Source of the DNA: Pontibacter sp. HSC-14F20
Lineage (GTDB): Bacteria > Bacteroidota > Bacteroidia > Cytophagales > Hymenobacteraceae
Length of the DNA: 64,000 bases
NCBI RefSeq assembly: GCF_019599265.1
Contig: NZ_JAHZTC010000003.1
Coordinates: 1-64,000, forward strand
Direction of reading: 5' to 3'
Shown: one piece after another, positions 2,744-14,193 of the stretch
Layout: each line of letters begins with the position of its first letter
Numbering within the stretch: the stretch's first letter is position 1
Translations under genes and position numbers: made by a program
Notes under the pieces: model-generated
The model's database searches: none
What the model was told of the DNA's origin: nothing
What the model saw: the letters and a program-made list of their open reading frames with translations, nothing else

Positions 2744-2774
2744 AATCCCCTGCAGTTACTGATTGCAGGGGATT
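2744..2774. terminator. Bidirectional hairpin terminator
   Basis: An 11-bp perfect stem (2744-2754 with 2764-2774, AATCCCCTGCA arm) with a 9-base loop lies between the convergent radical SAM gene and the DUF3686 ATPase gene. A-rich and T-rich flanks on either side let it serve both strands. Confidence 0.8.
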
Positions 2775-2796: not shown

Positions 2797-5700
2797 TTAC
2801 AGCTCCTCCGCCGCTTCCAGCTTGCTCGGCTTAAACTGACTCAGCACATCCTTTATACCTGCCAGTCCGCCGGAGATATTCTCCATTTCAGAAAGCACCT
2901 GCCCTACCTGGTTGTTGCCACCAAAGCCTTTGAGCTTGTTGTTGCGCACAAAGGTGGTTTTGATATTTTCCCAGCGCTGCGCCTCAACTTCAGTCATAAT
3001 GCCGATGAGTTGCTTGAACTTGAGCATGTTGGCTTCGGCACCGGAAGTGAGCGTCTGCGACTCAGCTTCGTAGTGCGACAGAATCAGGGTCTGCAGTTCC
3101 TGGTCGTTCATGATCGGCATGACTTTTTCTGCCAGCTTGTTCATGTTGCGGTAAGAACCCTGCAGCTTAAAAGCCGGCTCGGTGCGGTACTCTTCTGCCT
3201 GCGCAGCCGAGCGGATGTACTCCAGGTTCACTTTCAGGATCACGTCTTGGATCTTCAACAGCTTTTTCAGCACCAGCACATACTCATTTATTTCTGCAGC
3301 AGAATGATTGCCTTCAAACTCCAGCCCTTCGCTGTCGCCGGTTTTAGCCAGCTGGATCAGCGCGTAAATATCCTTCTGACTCTTCGCCGCCAGCTTCGCC
3401 AGCACGGTGTTGGAGGTCAGGGAGTTTTCGATGTAGCTCAGCTTGAACACATCTTCGGTATCGCCGATAATGTCGCCGAGGTTGTAGATGTCGGCGCGGT
3501 TGGCGAGCATGTCAGGTATACGGAACTTCTCCCCTGTCTCGGTGTACGGGTTACCGGCCATCACCACACACACTTTCTTGCCCCGGAAGTCATAGGTTTT
3601 GCTGCGACCTTTGTACACGCCTTCGACCTTGCGCTGGGCATCGCAAAGCGAGATAAATTTCTGCAGAAACTCCGGATTGCAATGTTGGATGTCGTCAAGG
3701 TAGATCATCACGTTGTCGCCCATCTCAAAGGACAAATTCAGTTTCTCCAGTTCTTCGCGGGCAGCGGCATTAGGGGCCTCTTTCGGGTCCAACGCCGTGA
3801 CCTGGTGGCCAATGGCCGGGCCGTTGATCTTCATAAAGATGATGCCCAGGCGGTTGGCGATATACTCCATGATGGTGGTCTTACCATAGCCCGGAGGCGA
3901 AAGCAGGAGCAACATACCCATCAGGTCGGTGCGCTTGGTCTCCCCTGCCGAACCGATCTGCTTGGCCAAATTAGCGCCTATCAGTGGCAGGTATACCTGA
4001 TCGATGAGCTTGTTGCGCACAAAAGAAGCCAGCACCCGCGGCTTGAACTCATTCAGACGAAGCGCCTGCTCGGCCTGCTGCGTCATGTTCTTCTTCAGCT
4101 CCGTAAACTGCATAAAAGCAGTTGCGGTGCCGGAGGTATATTCGCGTAACCGGTGTAGGAACTGGTGATAGTTTAACTGGTAGCTTTGTCCCTGCACCTG
4201 CTGGTGCGCGCCCTGCATACCATGCAGATTTTCTTTAAGAACCGTGTGCACCACCTGCAGCGGATTGTAGCTATCGGTGAGCAAGAGTATTGCCACTTCG
4301 GCCACAAACTCGGCCTTGTCATGCTGCCCCGTCTGCGCGATGTATGCTTTCAGCCAGTGCTGGATCAGTTCGAACTGGTGCGCTACATTTTCCTGCAGTG
4401 CCTTCACCGATTCTTCAAACCGATCCAGCACTTTGCGCTCCGTCAGGAAATGCCTGAAGCCGTCATACAGCACATCGGCTTGACTGTCGATGACAAAATT
4501 GTTGCCGCGGGTCAGTTCGTAAAACAGGTACTCCCCTGCTTCCGCAGCATTAGCCTCTCTGCAAAGACCGGTTTCTTGCTGAAAGGTATAGAGTTCCTCC
4601 TGTAGATCGGCCTTCACGTCATCAAACTCGTGGGTGTCGGGGAAAACCTGCAGGATGGCGCTTATACCTTTGAGCTGGTGGTTGAGCGTATTTTTTTTTG
4701 CTTCCGGTGCAAACACCTTCCAGTACAGCTGCGCACAAGACCGGTCGATGGAGGTATAACGCAACAGATCAGCTGTCTTGATCAGGCGGATCAGGGCACC
4801 TAAAATCAGGGCCGCATCATGATCATGCACCCCTTTCATGTAGCCTTCATTAAAGCGAATGGCCATGAACTTGTTCACGTACTCGGTCAGCTCGGACTCC
4901 GTCAATTTATGCAGTTCGTCTATGGTCAGGTAGCGCAGGCTGTTCTCTGTTTGCTGAACGGCTATACCTTTGTCCTGCCCGGCTTCCAGTACTTTGAAGG
5001 CGAGGTATTCGGCGCGGTATACCTGGTTGTTCTCCGATACTAGAGTCTGCTCCCACACCGGGCGGTAGCTCAAAAACTGGTCATCGGTGATCTTCTCGAA
5101 AAAGTTGGTGCCGGTGAGGTGGTAGTACATGGAGTCGTCGCGATGCACCACGCTCAGTTCCAGCGGCTGCGTGTTCACTGTAAACTGGTGCTTGCCGAAC
5201 TTGAGTATATTGGCACCATCCACGAACAGCTCTTGTTTGTCCTTGAGTTGACGCACAGCGTCTTCCTTCAGCGTTTTAAGGCGACTCTGGATGGTATCGG
5301 CCTTCACCGTGTCGCCGATCTTGAGCAGTTCCTTCACCGTGCTCCGTACCTTTTCGATCATCAGATCAGAAGCAAAGTAGCCGTTGATCTCATTCACTGA
5401 GGTCAGTTTGCCGGCCCGGTTTTGCACCGCTTTCAGGATGCGGTCTGCCGCTTGTTGCAGACTGTTAGCGCGCTTGTTCTGCGCCTCCTGCAGTTGCACC
5501 TTCTTCGACTCGAAGGCGCTGTAGATCTCCTCACGCTTGACCGTGAGCTGCTCAATAAACTCATCAAAATCAGGGAAGCGGCCTTCTAGTTCTTCCAATT
5601 GCACCATCAGTTTGGCCAGGTATTCCTCGCACTTCTGCGGCGAATCCGACACGTCGAGGTAGTTCACCACGCTCTGGCTCATGAGCTTTATTTGGGAATT

Positions 5701-7764
5701 GAATTCGGCTTTGCCCTCCTGACTCAAAAGCTCCTTACGCTTGCGGCGCAGGGTGGCTTTGGTCTGATTGAAGGTGGCGTAGATAGCCGAGATGGTATCG
5801 ATGATGCGGGTGGTCTGCGTAGCGTCTTCGATCTTGAGGTTACTCACCACATCGATCAGCATTTCCAACTCCGCCGAAACCGCCGCAATCTCTTTGTCGG
5901 TCGCGTCGGCCTCCACCACCTTGGCTATACCTTGGATGGCGGTGTTGATCTCCTTTACCTTCTTCTCGTAAGGCGCCAGTGCGTTAGGTTGCAGAAGAAA
6001 TTCAACAGCTCCGTTCGCGGTGTCCTGGGCAAATTGCTGCAGCTGTGCCTCGTATTTTTCGATGTTCGGCAGGTCGGTATAGCGCAACTCTTTCAGTGAA
6101 ATCACCTCTCCACGTATACTGCGCAAATCGGCCAGGTACTTCACATAATGATTGATACTTTCGGCCTTTTTGAACTTCAGCGTCTGAATAAGCACATCGG
6201 CCTGACCCAACACTTGACTTATCTGCGCCTGCGTGTTTTTCTTGATGCTGAGCACCTTCTCGTACTCCTCCACCGCCGCCGTGGCCGTCTGTCTTATCGC
6301 CGAAATCGGGGCAGCCAGGTTGTGGGTTTCCGCACGGTTGAGCCAGTGGTAGGAGTCTAGCACATCCGTCGTCTTTTTGATCAGATCCAGGTATAGGTTG
6401 GCGTAGGAATCGTCTTTGTGGAGCAAGGACAGCACCTCGTTGCTCTCAGCCATCGCCCGCACAATATCCTTGTTTCCGATCTTGTAAAGATAGGACTCCT
6501 GTGTAACAGGTATAACGAAGTTCGGCCCGATGTAAGGCGTCTGCCAGATCTGAATGGCATGGTGCTTCTGCGCCTCCTCGTCAGCCCTGAAATAGCATAG
6601 CTCCCCGTTCTCGTAAATGGCATAGCCGTGGCAAACGATCGGCGTTTCGATCTGCTGCGTGATCAGGTTGTAGGACAGCAACAGGTATACGCTTGACTCT
6701 TTGTTGTAGAACACATACAGGAAATCCTCGCCGTTCGGGGAAGCAATGCGCTTCTCGAAGAGCATGTCCTGTAGGTTGTTGTCGAAAGCTTTGAACTCAC
6801 CCGTCTGCAGGTAGTAGCCATAGGCGTAGATAATGCCCTGTCCGTCCGGCAACAGCACACAGCTGTGCTCCAGCGCGTCGATGCGGCGGGCTTCCTGCAG
6901 CTTGGAGTTGTAAACGAAATAGCGGTAGTTATTCTCGCGGTATGGCCGGATCTTCAGGATGATAATATTGCCAACCACGGCGTAGTATATTTCCGAATCA
7001 TCCAGCGTCTGGTCTTTGTCTTCGACCTCTTCGGAATAAATGCCGCGGCCGGAATCGGTGTTGTCTTCTACCTTAATGGTCAGGTCACCGCCGACCGTCT
7101 CCACGAACACTTTGTCCTCGATGGACACATGCGGGTGCTTGCCTTTGCGCTGCGCCTCGCGGGTGGTGCGTTTCCAGCTGAAGTCGTGCTGGTTCGGGAA
7201 CACATACTCGTGATCACTGCGGTTGTCGATGTAGGTGATGGTATCGCCTTTGAGCAACCACTTAAAAGTTTTGATATCGTTGATGCCCTTGCCAACCCGG
7301 AATACCATGTACAGGTAGTTGCCGATGTGCGCAAACTTGACGAACTGGGTGTTCTTGTAGTACTTGTAGAGCTTTTGAAAGTCGTCCTGAAAGGTCTTAT
7401 CCTGCAGCAAATCGAGCGGCTGCTGATGGAAGCTGTGGCCTTCGTAGGTATAGACGCCAAACACATCCGACAGCTCTACTTCCGACTTCAGGCCCAGGTA
7501 TACGTTGTAGCCAAAAAGCAAGGTATAGCCCACCGGCACCATGTCCGAGGGCACACAGTTGTTCTCAGTGGTAATGCGCTCGGTCGTGACTAGCTGCGTT
7601 TCAATGGCACCGAACACACTCTTTCGCTCCTGATTCAGTTGCTCTAGTTGCGCACGCAGTTCGGCCCCGCTTTTCTGCAGACGGTTCCGTAAGATTTCAT
7701 AGGTACCACCCTCCAACTGCACGTTTTCGGCAGCGGGTGTGGTGGCGGTATTGGTATCTTCCAT
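2797..7764 (-). CDS. DUF3686-type giant AAA+ ATPase ('DNA repair ATPase' family)
   Basis: About 1655 residues from the ATG at 7764; a TTG at 7821 would add 19 residues. An N-terminal coiled segment is followed by a beta-rich region (residues ~60-450, propeller-like alternation of strands, matching DUF3686). Then come long helical/coiled-coil segments (~480-900), a further helical region, and a C-terminal AAA+ module. Walker A is PPGYGKTT near residue 1290, Walker B is MIYLDDIQH near 1350, and a sensor-like AGNP lies near 1400. The family is often labelled a DNA-repair ATPase, but no nuclease or DNA-binding domain is visible. It lies downstream of flotillin and YqiJ-like genes on the same strand, a recurring pairing that suggests a membrane-linked remodelling machine. 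Its target is unknown. Confidence 0.85.
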   Translation of the reverse strand: MEDTNTATTPAAENVQLEGGTYEILRNRLQKSGAELRAQLEQLNQERKSVFGAIETQLVTTERITTENNCVPSDMVPVGYTLLFGYNVYLGLKSEVELSDVFGVYTYEGHSFHQQPLDLLQDKTFQDDFQKLYKYYKNTQFVKFAHIGNYLYMVFRVGKGINDIKTFKWLLKGDTITYIDNRSDHEYVFPNQHDFSWKRTTREAQRKGKHPHVSIEDKVFVETVGGDLTIKVEDNTDSGRGIYSEEVEDKDQTLDDSEIYYAVVGNIIILKIRPYRENNYRYFVYNSKLQEARRIDALEHSCVLLPDGQGIIYAYGYYLQTGEFKAFDNNLQDMLFEKRIASPNGEDFLYVFYNKESSVYLLLSYNLITQQIETPIVCHGYAIYENGELCYFRADEEAQKHHAIQIWQTPYIGPNFVIPVTQESYLYKIGNKDIVRAMAESNEVLSLLHKDDSYANLYLDLIKKTTDVLDSYHWLNRAETHNLAAPISAIRQTATAAVEEYEKVLSIKKNTQAQISQVLGQADVLIQTLKFKKAESINHYVKYLADLRSIRGEVISLKELRYTDLPNIEKYEAQLQQFAQDTANGAVEFLLQPNALAPYEKKVKEINTAIQGIAKVVEADATDKEIAAVSAELEMLIDVVSNLKIEDATQTTRIIDTISAIYATFNQTKATLRRKRKELLSQEGKAEFNSQIKLMSQSVVNYLDVSDSPQKCEEYLAKLMVQLEELEGRFPDFDEFIEQLTVKREEIYSAFESKKVQLQEAQNKRANSLQQAADRILKAVQNRAGKLTSVNEINGYFASDLMIEKVRSTVKELLKIGDTVKADTIQSRLKTLKEDAVRQLKDKQELFVDGANILKFGKHQFTVNTQPLELSVVHRDDSMYYHLTGTNFFEKITDDQFLSYRPVWEQTLVSENNQVYRAEYLAFKVLEAGQDKGIAVQQTENSLRYLTIDELHKLTESELTEYVNKFMAIRFNEGYMKGVHDHDAALILGALIRLIKTADLLRYTSIDRSCAQLYWKVFAPEAKKNTLNHQLKGISAILQVFPDTHEFDDVKADLQEELYTFQQETGLCREANAAEAGEYLFYELTRGNNFVIDSQADVLYDGFRHFLTERKVLDRFEESVKALQENVAHQFELIQHWLKAYIAQTGQHDKAEFVAEVAILLLTDSYNPLQVVHTVLKENLHGMQGAHQQVQGQSYQLNYHQFLHRLREYTSGTATAFMQFTELKKNMTQQAEQALRLNEFKPRVLASFVRNKLIDQVYLPLIGANLAKQIGSAGETKRTDLMGMLLLLSPPGYGKTTIMEYIANRLGIIFMKINGPAIGHQVTALDPKEAPNAAAREELEKLNLSFEMGDNVMIYLDDIQHCNPEFLQKFISLCDAQRKVEGVYKGRSKTYDFRGKKVCVVMAGNPYTETGEKFRIPDMLANRADIYNLGDIIGDTEDVFKLSYIENSLTSNTVLAKLAAKSQKDIYALIQLAKTGDSEGLEFEGNHSAAEINEYVLVLKKLLKIQDVILKVNLEYIRSAAQAEEYRTEPAFKLQGSYRNMNKLAEKVMPIMNDQELQTLILSHYEAESQTLTSGAEANMLKFKQLIGIMTEVEAQRWENIKTTFVRNNKLKGFGGNNQVGQVLSEMENISGGLAGIKDVLSQFKPSKLEAAEEL

Positions 7765-7915
7765 TTGGGTTGGAGGATTAAGAATGAATGATGGTAAGTT
7801 TTTGGCTTCAGTTAAAGCCAATTGTTTTCACAGTTAGATCCTGTACTAATGGTTTGTATAACGTTTCTCGTATAGCCGATGGACTGGCTAAGCCGAGCAT
7901 AAAGGTTGAACTTTG

Positions 7916-8389
7916 CTAGGTAATGCCTTTTAAATGATCTTCCCACTCTTCTTCAGTAAAGCCTTTAGAGCCAAATAAACTGCCAGCTCCAAAATTACTG
8001 TCTCTGATGTCTACTAATTCTCCTTGAAAGCCGCTACCAAGTATAAATTTTACAGTTAAACCAAATACCGTAGCTATTTCCAAAGCCTTACTTTTAGGAT
8101 TAAAGATTATCCTGTCGATGAAGTGATTGTCTGTAAATCTTTCATTTACTCCTTCTAATACAATTTCTTTTACTCCTGATAATTTCAATATAGATGTCTT
8201 GCCGCCGAAGCTGGTGCTTGTCCAAAACAGAAATTTCTTCCTTTTTACATTCTCAAAGCACCTTCTTTCTATTTCAATTTCAATCGGCGTATCTATACTC
8301 AAATTCTCAAGTTTTTCAAACTCAACACTGGCGTCAAAGAGTAAGTGGTTTAAGCTCTCTAAATCTTCTAAGTCAATTTTATAAACCAT
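7916..8389 (-). CDS. Hypothetical protein, AT-rich orphan
   Basis: A 157-residue acidic protein, starting ATG at 8389. I do not recognise the family. It has no signal peptide or membrane segment; the predicted mix of short helices and strands resembles a small soluble immunity-like or DUF fold, but that is a guess. The gene is visibly richer in A and T than the flotillin and ATPase genes on either side and carries no AGGTATA motif. A strong terminator (8426-8457) separates it from flotillin, so it probably has its own transcript although it sits inside the module. Confidence 0.65.
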   Translation of the reverse strand: MVYKIDLEDLESLNHLLFDASVEFEKLENLSIDTPIEIEIERRCFENVKRKKFLFWTSTSFGGKTSILKLSGVKEIVLEGVNERFTDNHFIDRIIFNPKSKALEIATVFGLTVKFILGSGFQGELVDIRDSNFGAGSLFGSKGFTEEEWEDHLKGIT

Positions 8390-8425
8390 TGCTTTACTTT
8401 TAACACCACCTAATACAGGTATAAA

Positions 8426-8457
8426 AAGCCCCTCTCCTGTTTTTAGGAGAGGGGCTT
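8426..8457 (-). terminator. Rho-independent terminator of the flotillin gene
   Basis: A 13-bp perfect stem (8426-8438 with 8445-8457, AGCCCCTCTCCT arm) with a 6-base loop is followed on the minus strand by a T-run. It lies 10 bp beyond the flotillin stop codon. Confidence 0.85.
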
Positions 8458-8466
8458 GGGGTGAGG

Positions 8467-10602
8467 TTAGTTCAGTGAAATGTAAGGCTTATCTGCTATA
8501 CCCATGGCTGTGGCCGCTGAGGTCAGCTGCTTCAGGGTGTTAATTGTGCCTTCATCAGCACTGCTCTGCATCATTTTCAGCAGGATGGCCGAAACACTCA
8601 GGTTGCGCACGTCGTCGGAGGTCATACCGAACTGGTTGATAAACTGTTGCAGGTTCTCGCGGAAATCCACGTGGCCGTTGGCGTTTGGCTGGAAGAAGGT
8701 ATCCTTCACGGTGTTCAGCACTTCGCTGTTGCTTACCAGGCGGTCCACCTGCTTGCCTTTGGTGATGGAGCCTACGATCTGGTCGAAGAACATGGTCTCG
8801 CCACCCACGATGTCGATCTTCGCTGACTTCAGCGCCTCAGAAATTACCTCGGCCTGTGAAGCGGCAATGTCTTTCTGGATGTTGATGTGTGCCAGTTCGA
8901 TGGCCTTGTCTTTCTCCAGACGCAACTTGAACTCTTCGTGCTCTTTGCCCACGCCATCCAGTTTGCGCATCGCTTCGGCTTTCTCTTCTATACCTTTGGC
9001 ATCTACAGTGAACTTCTCGCCTATTACACGGGCCTCTGCAAGTCCGCGCTTCTCTTCTGCAGTAGCCATATTTTCCACCACAGTTGCGTCGGCTATACCT
9101 TGCTCCTTGGTTACCTTGGCGGTTACCATACCCAGTTTCTCGTCAGCTTCGGCCTGCGCGTTGGCTTTGGCTTTGATCACCAGTGCTTCCGCTTCGCCTT
9201 CTTTCTGACGGGCATGCGCTTTGGCCTCCATCACCTGAGCTTCAGACAGGCCAATGGCGGCTGCCTGCGCTGCTTCGGCTTCTGCCATGGTCTTGATCGC
9301 CTGGGCACGGTTGTTCGAAGACACCTGCTCTGCCTCCGCATCGATCAGCAATTGCTTGGCGCGGAACTCCGCTGCCTGACGGGCTGCTTCGGCGCTCTTG
9401 ATCTCTTTCACCAGCGATTCTTCTGCTTCCCGCTCCGCGTTCTTGATTGCCACAGCTTTCACACGATCCGCTTCAGCGAAAGCCCTGGTGTCCTTGATCT
9501 TTTCTTCTTCTTCTACCACGGCTTTTTCCACGGTCACACGCTCGCGGATAATGCCCTGTATATTCTTGCGTTCTTCTTCAATGGCTTTCTCTTTCTCAAT
9601 CTGAGCAAGCGACACAATTCGTTCTTTTTCATTGGCCTCCAGCAAACGCGCCTGCTCCACACGCTCTGTTTCGATGGCGTCCGTGCGTTGCTTGCTGCGT
9701 TCTGCTACCAGTATCTGGCGGTCTTTGTTCTGCTCGGCAATCTTCACTTCTTCGTCGGTGGCGATGCGGGCTTTTTCTGCTTTCAGGCGCTCTTCGTGGC
9801 GCACTTTCTCCATCTCGGCAAACTCACGCGATTTGATGTTGGCAATCTCGCGCTTCTGCTTTTCTTCATTCTCCGCCAGTTGCTTTTCGAGTTCCAGAAT
9901 CGTCTCCTGCGCCTCCACGTCCTGCTTCTTGATCGTCTTCTGCTTTTCGCGCTCGATCAGGTTCGCCTGCACTTTCTGCTTGGCCGTCAGGTCGATGATC
10001 TTTTTGATACCCTCGGCATCGAGGATGTTGTTTTCGTTCAGGTGGGTCAGTGGGGTCTGCTCCAGGTAGTCGATCGCGCAATCATCCAGCACATAGCCGT
10101 TCAGGTCGGTACCGATCGTCTGTAGAATCTGGCGCTTGAAATCATCGCGGCTCTGGTACAGGTCCACGAAATCGAAATGCTTACCCACCGTCTTGAGTGC
10201 TTCCGAGAATTTGGCATCGAATAGACTCTCCAGCGCTGAATGATCCGAAGCGCGCTTACAGCCAATCGACTGCGCCACCTGTATCACATCTTCCGGCGTT
10301 TTGTTCACGCGCAAAAAGAAGTTCACCTTGATGTCGGCGCGCAGGTTGTCTTTACAGATCAATCCTTCGGAGCCTGTCCGGGAAATGACGATTGTTTTGA
10401 GGGTAATGTCCATCACCTCCAGTTTATGGATAACGGGCACGACAAAGATGCCGGAGAAAGACACTTTTGTGTCGCCCAGACCGGTACGCACCAGGGCTTC
10501 GCCTTGAATGGCCTTCTGGTACATTTTGATAACAAAGACTATTAAGCCAATGGCGAATACCGCCAGCATAATGACGATAGACAGGGATAAAGATTCTAAC
10601 AT
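8467..10602 (-). CDS. Flotillin / YqiK-like SPFH-domain membrane protein
   Basis: A 711-residue protein starting ATG at 10602. It has one N-terminal membrane helix (residues ~5-28), an SPFH/band-7 domain (~35-220, with VVPVIHKLEVMDIT), a very long Ala/Glu/Lys coiled coil (~220-580) typical of flotillins, and a helical tail. Flotillins form ring- or cage-like scaffolds on the inner membrane that organise microdomains. It is longer than E. coli YqiK, mainly in the coil and tail. It lies 5 bp downstream of the YqiJ-like gene, an operon arrangement also known from E. coli yqiJ-yqiK. Confidence in the family is high; its cargo is unknown. Confidence 0.93.
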   Translation of the reverse strand: MLESLSLSIVIMLAVFAIGLIVFVIKMYQKAIQGEALVRTGLGDTKVSFSGIFVVPVIHKLEVMDITLKTIVISRTGSEGLICKDNLRADIKVNFFLRVNKTPEDVIQVAQSIGCKRASDHSALESLFDAKFSEALKTVGKHFDFVDLYQSRDDFKRQILQTIGTDLNGYVLDDCAIDYLEQTPLTHLNENNILDAEGIKKIIDLTAKQKVQANLIEREKQKTIKKQDVEAQETILELEKQLAENEEKQKREIANIKSREFAEMEKVRHEERLKAEKARIATDEEVKIAEQNKDRQILVAERSKQRTDAIETERVEQARLLEANEKERIVSLAQIEKEKAIEEERKNIQGIIRERVTVEKAVVEEEEKIKDTRAFAEADRVKAVAIKNAEREAEESLVKEIKSAEAARQAAEFRAKQLLIDAEAEQVSSNNRAQAIKTMAEAEAAQAAAIGLSEAQVMEAKAHARQKEGEAEALVIKAKANAQAEADEKLGMVTAKVTKEQGIADATVVENMATAEEKRGLAEARVIGEKFTVDAKGIEEKAEAMRKLDGVGKEHEEFKLRLEKDKAIELAHINIQKDIAASQAEVISEALKSAKIDIVGGETMFFDQIVGSITKGKQVDRLVSNSEVLNTVKDTFFQPNANGHVDFRENLQQFINQFGMTSDDVRNLSVSAILLKMMQSSADEGTINTLKQLTSAATAMGIADKPYISLN

Positions 10603-10607
10603 GCGAA

Positions 10608-11234
10608 TTAAATGGTTTGGTAAGGTTCTATGAGGTAAAATTTGTTTTCAGCATTGTACTCGAGCACGAGCGCGGTCTCGCCTTTCTGCACAGCGGAGCC
10701 CTGGGTGGTTCTGACATTCAACAGGAGCGGCGCGCCGGCCGTCTTCACGGCGGCCTGGCCCAGCTCGTTGCCGTTGGCCGGCAAGGTAACCGTGCAGATC
10801 TGCCCGATGATAGCGGCAGCCGATTCGTGTTCTTTTTCCATGGCGGCAAACACACGCATGAAAGGCATGGTCAGGAATTTGGCCACAAAAAGTGCCGCGA
10901 TAAAGGACGGGATCAGGTATAGCCAGCCTAACCAGGTATAGCCATCGTTGAGGTAGTAATTGGCCAGGATTGAGATCGCCCAGAAAGGCAGCGCCAGGAA
11001 AGTGAGGAACACCATAAAGGGCACCTTACCCAGGTTGAAAAAGGCCAGTACGTTGTTGAGCCAGCTGACCGCCGACAGGCCATCTGCATCCACATCGGGT
11101 TCCACTTCTACGTCAAAAAAGTCGAGGTCCAGCAAGCCAAAGATCACGGCAAGCCAGTACAGCATGACAAAGACTAACAGGGCAGTTGGGAGGATGTTAA
11201 CGGCAGAAAAAGTAGCTTGTAAAAGTTCGTTCAT
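10608..11234 (-). CDS. YqiJ-like OB-fold membrane protein, flotillin partner
   Basis: About 208 residues from the ATG at 11234 (MNELLQATF); a second in-frame ATG at 11255 would add seven residues. The N-terminal half carries three hydrophobic segments. The C-terminal half is a small beta-rich domain with VTLPANGNELGQAAVKT and GETALVLEY, typical of the YqiJ/NfeD-type OB fold. In E. coli and many other bacteria such proteins are encoded just before a flotillin and assemble with it in the membrane. Here the stop codon is 5 bp from the flotillin start, so the two are almost certainly co-transcribed. Confidence 0.85.
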   Translation of the reverse strand: MNELLQATFSAVNILPTALLVFVMLYWLAVIFGLLDLDFFDVEVEPDVDADGLSAVSWLNNVLAFFNLGKVPFMVFLTFLALPFWAISILANYYLNDGYTWLGWLYLIPSFIAALFVAKFLTMPFMRVFAAMEKEHESAAAIIGQICTVTLPANGNELGQAAVKTAGAPLLLNVRTTQGSAVQKGETALVLEYNAENKFYLIEPYQTI

Positions 11235-11348
11235 AGGCAGAAGGAGGTATAACATATATGGTGCTATAAATATAAAAGAATATTCATAACAAAGCCTATA
11301 CTTTTTGTATTTGAAGCGCAGAAAAAATTAAAAATGCAGTCCTTCCAC

Positions 11349-13362: not shown

Positions 13363-14088
13363 CTATACCTCTTTTATTCGCTGGATCAACTCCTGCATCC
13401 GCTCATAATGCGAGCCTTTCCAGTAAACCCGTCTGCATTGCTGGCACTGGTAAAACTCGTCGAAGTATACCTTGGTTTTAGGCGGGATTTGCTCCAGCAC
13501 GTCCCGTTTCTCGACCGGCACAATGTGGCCGTTGCAAACCATACAGCGGGTAAAAGGCTGGAAATGACCTGCTAACTTATACCTGCTGATCACTTCCTGC
13601 AATTGCTCTTCGGTTTGCTGGGAGCGCAGCCAGTAGCCGGCAGGTATAGCCTTGTGCTTGAGCAAGTTCACATCCCGCGTGAGCAGAATCCGTTGCTCTT
13701 CACTGGAGATCTGAACAAGTTCCGGATCATGCAGTTGCTGCTCGTATACCGTGTCGAAACCCAACATGCGTAAATAACGGGCCAGCGAGCCGAGGTGCAC
13801 ATCCAGCACGAAACGTGGCTCCGCTATACCTGGCAGCAGTTCCGCCTCCCCTCCTTCGTATGAATATACTTCCACCTGATCACCTGCCTGAATCCGCTGG
13901 CTAAAACTTAATTCTTCCCCATTTACCAACACGTTTTTCACCTCAAGATGCGGCACGCCCATCGCCTCGATCATGTCTTTTACTGTCTGGTGCTCTGCGA
14001 AGGTATAGAAGATGGCAGTATGCCGCTGGCGGGGCCGCAAAAAGTCTTTCAGGGAGTCGTGAAACCGGAAAGTAGCGGTATAGGACAT
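13363..14088 (-). CDS. Mut7-C family RNase with N-terminal ubiquitin-like domain and zinc ribbon
   Basis: A 241-residue protein from the ATG at 14088. A longer frame reaches 14160 but would run through the terminator of the next gene, so I reject it. Residues 1-85 form a ubiquitin-like/ThiS-like domain (GDQVEVYSYEGG). Residues 90-165 match the Mut7-C PIN-type RNase domain (FVLDVHLGSLARYLRMLGFD, LLTRDVNLL), with its acidic residues in place. The C-terminus carries two Cys pairs (CMVC and CQQC), a zinc ribbon. This domain order is a known architecture; it presumably acts on RNA in the cytoplasm, with unknown substrate. It is a single gene ending at a shared bidirectional terminator. Confidence 0.85.
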   Translation of the reverse strand: MSYTATFRFHDSLKDFLRPRQRHTAIFYTFAEHQTVKDMIEAMGVPHLEVKNVLVNGEELSFSQRIQAGDQVEVYSYEGGEAELLPGIAEPRFVLDVHLGSLARYLRMLGFDTVYEQQLHDPELVQISSEEQRILLTRDVNLLKHKAIPAGYWLRSQQTEEQLQEVISRYKLAGHFQPFTRCMVCNGHIVPVEKRDVLEQIPPKTKVYFDEFYQCQQCRRVYWKGSHYERMQELIQRIKEV

Positions 14089-14126
14089 GGGCACAAGGTA
14101 TAACCAAGGTATACGCACCAAAAATA

Positions 14127-14155
14127 AAAGCGCCCAGGCAAAACCCGGGCGCTTT
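14127..14155 (-). terminator. Terminator of the TonB receptor gene
   Basis: A GC-rich 9-bp stem (14127-14135 with 14147-14155, AAAGCGCCC arm) is followed on the minus strand by TTTTATTTTT. It lies about 40 bp after the receptor stop codon. Confidence 0.75.
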
Positions 14156-14193
14156 ATCAATTAACAAAAACCAGTCTTTACACTTTCACAAAC

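What the first reader, a model, noticed from the sequence alone, without database searches (positions are those of the whole stretch)
2797..11234. YqiJ-flotillin-DUF3686 giant ATPase module
An OB-fold membrane protein, a long flotillin and a 1650-residue AAA+ protein with a propeller-like region and coiled coils are encoded in series. The known pairing of YqiJ with flotillin plus a DUF3686 ATPase suggests a membrane-anchored machine that senses or repairs something, perhaps envelope damage or phage attack. The biochemistry of this triplet is unresolved as far as I know.
Basis: partly seen in the sequence, partly recalled or inferred. Interest (0 to 1): 0.62.

Follow-up and report, generated by a model that had tools for sequence, protein, structure and literature searches.

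The report
Membrane flotillin–ATPase machine without PspA
A conserved bacterial gene trio makes a membrane scaffold and a giant ATP-driven motor that probably handles damaged membrane proteins; the trio is already described in print, but this bacterium and its close relatives have lost the membrane-repair protein PspA that was thought to be its partner, and unrelated extra genes sit in the trio's middle.

Summary
The trio is real: on the minus strand a YqiJ-like membrane protein (11255-10608), a YqiK-like flotillin (10602-8467) and a DUF3686 AAA+ protein (start about 7764, not 7821). Flotillin and ATPase occur in the same 51 of 120 family genomes; order and strand are kept in 51 of 51 loci. 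Ravi et al. 2024 (PMC11237479) described the operon, including "abbreviated" forms suggested to use PspA encoded elsewhere. In this family that fails: 16 of 51 loci lack the CesT/Tir-PspA pair, the tree asks for five changes, and profile searches find neither protein anywhere in those 16 genomes. PspA is optional; the core is YqiJ-flotillin-ATPase. The ATPase is predicted as beta-propeller, long helices and an AAA+ module whose best aligned folds are MoxR-type CbbQ/NorQ, so "DNA repair ATPase" is poorly founded. The flotillin-ATPase gap takes extra genes: 12 of 12 clade members (window included), 16 genes in 12 sequence clusters. The window's own slot gene lies elsewhere in other genomes. Best mechanism (inferred, 0.42): flotillin-YqiJ holds damaged membrane proteins and the AAA+ motor remodels them. 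Function is untested.

The parts
10608..11255 (-). YqiJ/NfeD-like membrane protein, 215 aa as listed; likely start at the ATG at 11234 (7 codons in), where relatives begin
8467..10602 (-). YqiK-like flotillin (SPFH) with long coiled coil and a C-terminal tail unlike the Pfam Flot domain, 711 aa
   Evidence: same 51 of 120 genomes as the ATPase
8426..8457 (-). terminator-like hairpin directly after flotillin
   Evidence: hairpin in 11 of 12 clade members, T-run in 10 of 12
7916..8389 (-). 157-aa accessory ORF in the insertion slot; no Pfam (E <= 1) or PADLOC (E <= 0.1) family; relatives in 6 other genomes lie away from the module
7765..7915 (-). ATPase leader with a small hairpin (7802-7821); sequence element kept in 8 of 12 clade members
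2797..7764 (-). DUF3686-DUF7902-AAA+ ATPase, about 1655 aa from the conserved ATG (ORF as listed runs from 7821)
6346..7662 (-). DUF3686 domain, predicted beta-propeller (ORF residues about 54-492)
2797..4059 (-). AAA+ module and C-terminal tail (ORF residues about 1255-1674): SPPGYGKT, Y[L/V]DDIQH, GNPYTE, LANRAD, GSYRNMN
2744..2774 (-). terminator-like hairpin after the ATPase
   Evidence: reported on the + strand; minus strand, -18.9 kcal/mol

Best explanation
The trio is an energy-driven station for damaged or unfolded proteins at the inner membrane. YqiJ and flotillin form the membrane scaffold that captures clients, as FloA-NfeD does without ATP in S. aureus. The giant AAA+ protein docks on that scaffold through its propeller and coiled coils and uses ATP to pull, unfold or release the clients. 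PspA and its CesT/Tir-like partner are optional add-ons. Shown here: conserved linkage, flotillin-ATPase co-occurrence, intact ATPase motifs, predicted fold, and the module without PspA. Inferred: physical docking, the client, and the direction of work.
For: Flotillin and ATPase occur in the same 51 of 120 genomes; order kept in 51 of 51 loci. The ATPase motif residues are invariant in 12 diverse sequences apart from one L/V position; in 60 sequences the P-loop and the DDIQH and GNPYTE motifs stay at 95% or more. The AAA+ module aligns best with CbbQ (Z 16.8) and NorQ (Z 16.1), then dynein, Rea1 and Clp/Hsp104, motors that act on proteins (function recalled or in the entry titles). Propeller plus helices in the N-terminal half. 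Published: FloA-NfeD stabilises unfolded proteins without ATP (PMC11222466, passages); HflK/C-FtsH pairs an SPFH assembly with an AAA+ enzyme (PMC13220708, abstract and outline). PspA and CesT/Tir are not found in 16 of 51 carrier genomes.
Against: No interaction, client or phenotype was tested. S. aureus flotillin needs no ATP (PMC11222466). Deleting the P. aeruginosa flotillin PaFlo3 gave only about 20% less biofilm, with SPFH mutants not impaired in growth in rich medium (PMC13086221, passages). The hairpin after flotillin could separate expression of flotillin and ATPase. The flotillin tail that might dock the ATPase is short or missing in 3 of 17 aligned flotillins (by eye). In 3 of 65 loci flotillin is not upstream on the same strand, though those genomes encode one. 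By sequence alone the nearest solved proteins are p97/AFG2-type AAA proteins over a short P-loop stretch (E 6e-5 and 2e-5).
Confidence: 0.42

Rival explanations
1. ESCRT-like cycle: PspA (an ESCRT-III relative) coats stressed membrane and the AAA+ protein strips it, as Vps4 does; flotillin and YqiJ place the machine.
For: PspA and CesT/Tir sit upstream in 35 and 33 of 51 family loci. The 30 strong full-length PF04012 matches (E below 1e-30) in the 120-genome sample all lie beside the module. Ravi et al. propose ESCRT-like roles (PMC11237479, passages).
Against: 16 of 51 carriers have neither protein anywhere by profile search, with five changes on the tree. The AAA+ module aligns better with MoxR-type proteins than with the other folds listed.
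Confidence: 0.2
2. MoxR-type activase: the AAA+ protein matures a particular membrane enzyme, as NorQ and CbbQ activate theirs.
For: Best structural alignments are CbbQ and NorQ, Z 15-17.
Against: No von Willebrand-type partner among the nine proteins scanned around the locus. The helix-2 hairpin expected of that clade (recalled) is not seen as strands in the model. Neighbour genes were not surveyed systematically for a shared enzyme.
Confidence: 0.14
3. Anti-phage or invader defence: the scaffold senses membrane injury by a phage and the ATPase triggers a response, perhaps with a swappable effector gene from the slot.
For: PA3728-PA3732 up in all phage-infected P. aeruginosa samples (PMC12041424, one passage); patchy presence, 51 of 120 in the family sample and 10 of 395 in the phylum sample; slot genes include Abi_alpha, Imm33, DMP19-like and GIY-YIG families.
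Against: PADLOC gave only a weak hit to the ATP-binding module (mad8, E 4.9e-4); no match in 50,697 phage records and none confirmed in viral contigs. The window's own slot gene also occurs away from the module and in genomes without it. Induction by phage also fits plain envelope stress.
Confidence: 0.12
4. DNA-repair ATPase, as the database names say.
For: Weak hits to RuvB models over the P-loop and to RuvB structures by profile (E 3e-4); RuvB is also among the Foldseek matches (rank 9, E 2.9e-5, close to CbbQ's 1.6e-5, though TM by target is 0.36 against 0.61).
Against: RuvB model 23 bits against a cut-off of 282; constant linkage to two membrane proteins.
Confidence: 0.04

Closest known systems
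CesT/Tir-PspA-flotillin-AAA+-YqiJ operon and its abbreviated forms (Ravi et al. 2024, PMC11237479)
   Same: Same three core families; propeller and coiled coil on the AAA+ protein; the full set with both PspA and CesT/Tir is in 33 of 51 family loci
   Different: In 16 of 51 carriers PspA and CesT/Tir are not found in the whole genome, not just missing from the operon; extra-gene slot; MoxR-like placement of the AAA+ module (the word MoxR is not in that paper's main text)
bac operon of Pseudomonas aeruginosa, bacA-F (PMC10948618)
   Same: Chaperone-fold BacA, PspA-like BacB, NfeD-like PA14_16160 and flotillin PaFlo3 (PMC13086221), and downstream genes; PA3728 is listed as an ATPase (PMC8190622, one passage)
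   Different: No PspA or CesT-like gene here; that PA3728 / bacE is a DUF3686 protein is inferred from order and recall, not tested
E. coli YqiJ-YqiK
   Same: Homologous pair in the same order
   Different: No ATPase gene annotated beside it in K-12; YqiK has the Pfam Flot and Band_7 domains, the window protein hits neither
HflK/C-FtsH
   Same: SPFH assembly paired with an AAA+ enzyme (PMC13220708, abstract)
   Different: FtsH carries a protease; no protease domain among the Pfam hits here
MoxR AAA+ proteins CbbQ and NorQ
   Same: Best structural alignments of the AAA+ module
   Different: Those chains are about 255-267 residues; this module is fused to a propeller and coiled coils

Membership tests
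Ravi et al. flotillin-AAA+-YqiJ operon | AAA+ protein fused to N-terminal propeller and coiled coil | tested here: met
   Models with mean pLDDT 88.6 and 88.1; propeller matches such as DCAF1 and clathrin; long helices 483-847 of the N-terminal model
Ravi et al. flotillin-AAA+-YqiJ operon | neighbouring flotillin and YqiJ/YuaF membrane protein | tested here: met
Ravi et al. flotillin-AAA+-YqiJ operon (full form) | CesT/Tir-PspA pair | tested here: not met
   not at the locus and not in the genome; so this is the abbreviated form
PSP envelope-stress system | PspA present | tested here: not met
   0 matches in a 99.99% complete genome by PF04012 and by a profile of the module's own PspA
SPFH / flotillin (YqiK type) | homology over the SPFH domain and coiled coil | tested here: met
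   E 8e-42 to YqiK; profile 100%
SPFH / flotillin (YqiK type) | Pfam Band_7 and Flot domain scores | tested here: not met
   no Pfam hit for the window protein; Band_7 in 1 of 17 members, Flot in none at E <= 0.01; YqiK has both
MoxR AAA+ | fold of the AAA+ module | tested here: inconclusive
   CbbQ Z 16.8 (rmsd 3.9, 253 aligned) and NorQ 16.1 lead; dynein 14.7, Rea1 14.1 and Clp 13.3 follow; Foldseek E-values put LONP1 first and do not separate the clades; sequence favours p97-type AAA
MoxR AAA+ | helix-2 hairpin insert (recalled) | tested here: inconclusive
   no strands between model residues 475 and 511; a hairpin before the sensor-1 strand is seen (539-552)
RuvB / DNA-repair ATPase | score over the RuvB model cut-off | tested here: not met
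   23.1 bits against 282
known anti-phage system | match to PADLOC component models | tested here: inconclusive
   only mad8 E 4.9e-4 over residues 1300-1460; none at E <= 0.1 for YqiJ-like, flotillin or the 157-aa ORF
any of these | physical complex and ATPase activity | not testable with these tools
   needs biochemistry

The most novel reading that the evidence does not exclude
The YqiJ-flotillin-ATPase core is a self-standing membrane surveillance machine whose output is set by an exchangeable gene parked between flotillin and ATPase, between a conserved terminator-like hairpin and a conserved ATPase leader. In this clade the slot took over after the loss of PspA and now carries a different small effector or immunity gene in most species.
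Probability: 0.08. Interest if true: 0.75.

Novelty: new variant of a known kind. Interest (0 to 1): 0.43.

Why it matters
Flotillins are reported in almost all bacterial genomes (PMC11222466, passage), yet how one might be powered is unclear. This locus ties one flotillin lineage to one giant ATPase as an inseparable pair in the family sample, takes PspA off the list of required parts by whole-genome search, and moves the ATPase away from DNA repair towards protein-remodelling motors. That makes a defined three-gene set a testable model for ATP-driven work at bacterial flotillin domains. The insertion slot is a natural experiment in which one junction receives different genes in close relatives.

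Tried and rejected
Fourth core component: the 157-aa ORF looked like a missed subunit. No relative was found in the other 50 family or the 7 plasmid loci by phmmer. Across the 120-genome sample it occurs in 7 genomes, all of the window's genus; in the six others it lies away from the module, and two of those six (G083, G107) have no module. Rejected as a core part.

Slot as a unique hotspot: gaps over 450 bp occur in 42 of 51 family loci at flotillin-ATPase, but also in 14 of 35 at PspA-YqiJ and 10 of 51 at YqiJ-flotillin, and 0 of 33 at Tir-PspA (gaps rest on mechanical start codons). In the wider set it is 21 of 74. Inserts there include IS200-like transposase and PD-(D/E)XK genes. A permissive junction explains much of it, so the special meaning is kept as a minority reading. 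The 16 clade slot genes were picked by hand from the ORFs (overlapping and opposite-strand ORFs dropped), and the 12 clusters are BLASTP single-linkage groups at E 1e-5, so remote kinship between clusters is not excluded.

PspA elsewhere: in 31 genomes of the wider sample with the module and no PspA found beside it (31 of 39 such loci were given to the call), 22 had a PF04012 match somewhere, 16 over the cut-off, and 9 none. At least one (L114) has a divergent PspA-like gene just upstream that my profile missed. So outside the family the suggestion of Ravi et al. stays possible. Inside the family PF04012 matched 57 of 120 genomes (42 over the cut-off), many by partial matches (model positions 23-139) in proteins of about 340 residues that I do not count as PspA; one of the 16 PspA-less carriers (G070) has such a partial match, 34.2 bits against a cut-off of 33.9. 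PF04012 missed one divergent PspA (G037), so the search was repeated with profiles of the module's own PspA and CesT/Tir. Of the four positive controls there, two (G037, G049) had given rows to the profiles and two (G054, G042) had not.

RuvB is not among the 50 entries shown by VIA-align; it is in the Foldseek list. The Gimesia ORF of 3320 aa (L105) is an artefact of a run of N. Viral origin: no relative confirmed in viral contigs or found in phage records. The solved-structure search with the flotillin profile gave only the coiled coil of QmcA; with YqiJ nothing. The third Foldseek search was not run. The tree leaves out L087, whose ATPase is split. The wider sample is the best 80 of at least 576 confirmed matches, so it is biased to near relatives, and at least four of its genomes are also in the family set.
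Full report
What is there. On the minus strand the window holds a YqiJ-like membrane protein (11255-10608), a flotillin (10602-8467), a 157-aa ORF (8389-7916) and a giant ATPase (ORF 7821-2797). The ATPase carries DUF3686 (E 1.2e-192), DUF7902 (1.8e-28) and an AAA module (1e-6). In 12 of 12 clade members (window and 11 relatives) the ATG of ATGGAAGATAC is kept, so the true start is about 7764. The flotillin has no Pfam hit but matches E. coli YqiK at 29% identity, E 8e-42. The YqiJ-like protein matches E. coli YqiJ weakly by sequence (E 4e-7) and by profile (95%). The window's genus is not named.

Is it conserved as a unit? DUF3686 is in 51 of 120 sampled genomes of the family, and the window flotillin finds the same 51. 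I fetched the other 50 loci: YqiJ-like, flotillin and ATPase are in the same order and strand in 51 of 51; in one (L087) the ATPase is split in two ORFs. A scan of the species collection gave at least 576 relatives, of which the best 80 were kept; by record title they include Bacteroidota, Planctomycetota, Verrucomicrobiota, Desulfobacterota, Bacillota and others. Of 65 with at least 2.5 kb upstream, a flotillin is upstream on the same strand in 62, YqiJ-like in 58, PspA in 24, CesT/Tir in 23. The three without it (L102, L108, L121) encode a flotillin elsewhere or on the other strand. Twelve plasmid-collection records from nine genera carry the ATPase, some of them chromosome-sized; seven were fetched and all seven have flotillin upstream. 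In the phylum sample it is rare, 10 of 395 genomes, and it is in 0 of 14 control genomes.

What is known. Ravi et al. 2024 (PMC11237479; section 19 read in full; [quoted passage not shown] So the association is in print; I found no biochemistry of the trio. The term DUF3686 gives no paper in the library, and PF12458 and DUF7902 give none. Searches on flotillin with AAA+ and PspA or defence terms listed no paper that I recognised as testing it; I saw listings only for most of these.

New point 1: PspA is dispensable in this family. 35 of 51 family loci have PspA, 33 have both PspA and CesT/Tir, and 16 have neither. On the ATPase tree of 50 loci and two outgroups this needs five changes, which I read as five losses (FastTree, some forks open). 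One covers the window's 12-member clade. A PF04012 search of the 120 genomes found 30 strong full-length matches, all beside the module, and one weaker full-length one in a genome without it (G045); many other matches were partial. Because PF04012 missed one divergent case, I searched the 16 genomes and four controls with profiles of the module's own PspA and CesT/Tir: 0 of 16, and 4 of 4 controls, in both; two of the four controls were also in the profiles. In this family PspA goes with the module, while the module often goes without PspA. In the wider sample the picture is mixed: 22 of 31 genomes had some PF04012 match, 16 over the cut-off.

New point 2: the motor is probably not a DNA-repair type. 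Two models were made from 60- and 59-row alignments: residues 860-1674 (pLDDT 88.6) and 21-870 (pLDDT 88.1). The first half is a beta-propeller (matches DCAF1, clathrin and others; low overall TM because the model is multi-domain) followed by long helices. The AAA+ module is best aligned with CbbQ (Z 16.8) and NorQ (16.1), then dynein 14.7, Rea1 14.1 and Clp 13.3. Against this: Foldseek E-values put LONP1 first and do not separate CbbQ from RuvB, sequence searches favour p97/AFG2-type AAA over a short stretch, and the helix-2 hairpin of the MoxR clade is not visible. So membership stays open. The motifs SPPGYGKT, Y[L/V]DDIQH, GNPYTE, LANRAD and GSYRNMN are invariant in 12 sequences apart from the L/V and largely so in 60; naming them Walker A, Walker B, sensor 1, arginine finger and sensor 2 is by pattern and recall. 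RuvB model scores are far under the cut-off.

New point 3: an insertion slot. The flotillin-ATPase gap exceeds 450 bp in 42 of 51 family loci. In the window's clade, 12 of 12 members have extra genes there, 16 hand-picked genes in 12 clusters. Of 10 of these scanned, 7 hit a Pfam family over its cut-off: DUF2321, DMP19, Imm33, cREC_REC, GIY-YIG, DUF3800 and Abi_alpha; three did not. Members differ although flotillin and ATPase are 93-98% identical to the window's. A hairpin follows flotillin in 11 of 12 (T-run in 10), and a leader element precedes the ATPase in 8 of 12. The CAT-YqiJ gap on the other side is enlarged in one of the 12 (L046). The window's own slot gene is an accessory gene: in six other genomes of the genus it lies away from the module, two of them without the module. 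Against a special meaning: other junctions in the operon also take inserts, and inserts elsewhere include transposase and nuclease genes.

Mechanism. The best-supported reading joins three facts: flotillin and ATPase are never apart in the family sample, the ATPase keeps a complete set of AAA+ motifs, and published FloA-NfeD is an ATP-free clamp for unfolded membrane-associated proteins (PMC11222466, passages). The AAA+ protein would then supply ATP-driven remodelling at that clamp, by analogy with HflK/C-FtsH (PMC13220708, abstract). Docking, client and direction are inferred. Field data are thin: the P. aeruginosa bac genes are co-transcribed and their proteins rise together in a bacA mutant (PMC10948618, passages); PaFlo3 deletion has a mild biofilm effect (PMC13086221, passages); PA3728-PA3732 rise in all phage-infected samples (PMC12041424, one passage). 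That PA3728 is the DUF3686 gene rests on its place, its listing as an ATPase (PMC8190622, one passage) and recall.

Verdict. Real, conserved and already described as a unit; this window is the PspA-free form with an extra-gene slot. Function is untested. Interest 0.43.

Noticed in passing
L040, L056 (Pfam); by likeness also L065, L066, L078-L083 (slot between flotillin and ATPase): DUF559 (Vsr-like nuclease) genes sit in the slot in many relatives, and several predicted N-termini read through CCCCTCTCC-type palindromes, as if nuclease gene and palindrome travel together
   Followed up: partly
1260-2732: B12-binding radical SAM protein beside the ATPase on the other strand; matches HpnJ/BchE-like models below their cut-offs and PADLOC PDC-M51A (E 4.4e-9)
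   Followed up: no
331-1209: 292-aa ORF with no hit in the Pfam, NCBIfam, PADLOC and PHROG scans, next to the radical SAM gene and kept beside it in L048
   Followed up: no
13363-14160: Mut7-C RNase domain fused to a ubiquitin-like domain
   Followed up: no
7916-8389; G038, G083, G101, G105, G107, G111: The 157-aa slot gene is a genus-restricted accessory gene found at different places in six other genomes; its function is unknown
   Followed up: partly
L087 and L140: ATPase ORF split in two, possible frameshift or assembly error
   Followed up: no
L100:14000-15721: ATPase C-terminal extension with ankyrin repeats in a Desulfobacterales genome; many Planctomycetes and Verrucomicrobia have other tails of roughly 40-170 aa
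   Followed up: partly
L149 and L151: Divergent flotillin (about 40% identity) before the ATPase with no YqiJ-like gene found; by eye both share the same genes downstream
   Followed up: no
L054, L059, L062, L064, L067, L069, L070, L072, L085 (slot): By eye a secreted or membrane coiled-coil protein of 222-269 aa fills the slot in the nine loci of one clade of the tree, so some slot genes become fixed
   Followed up: partly
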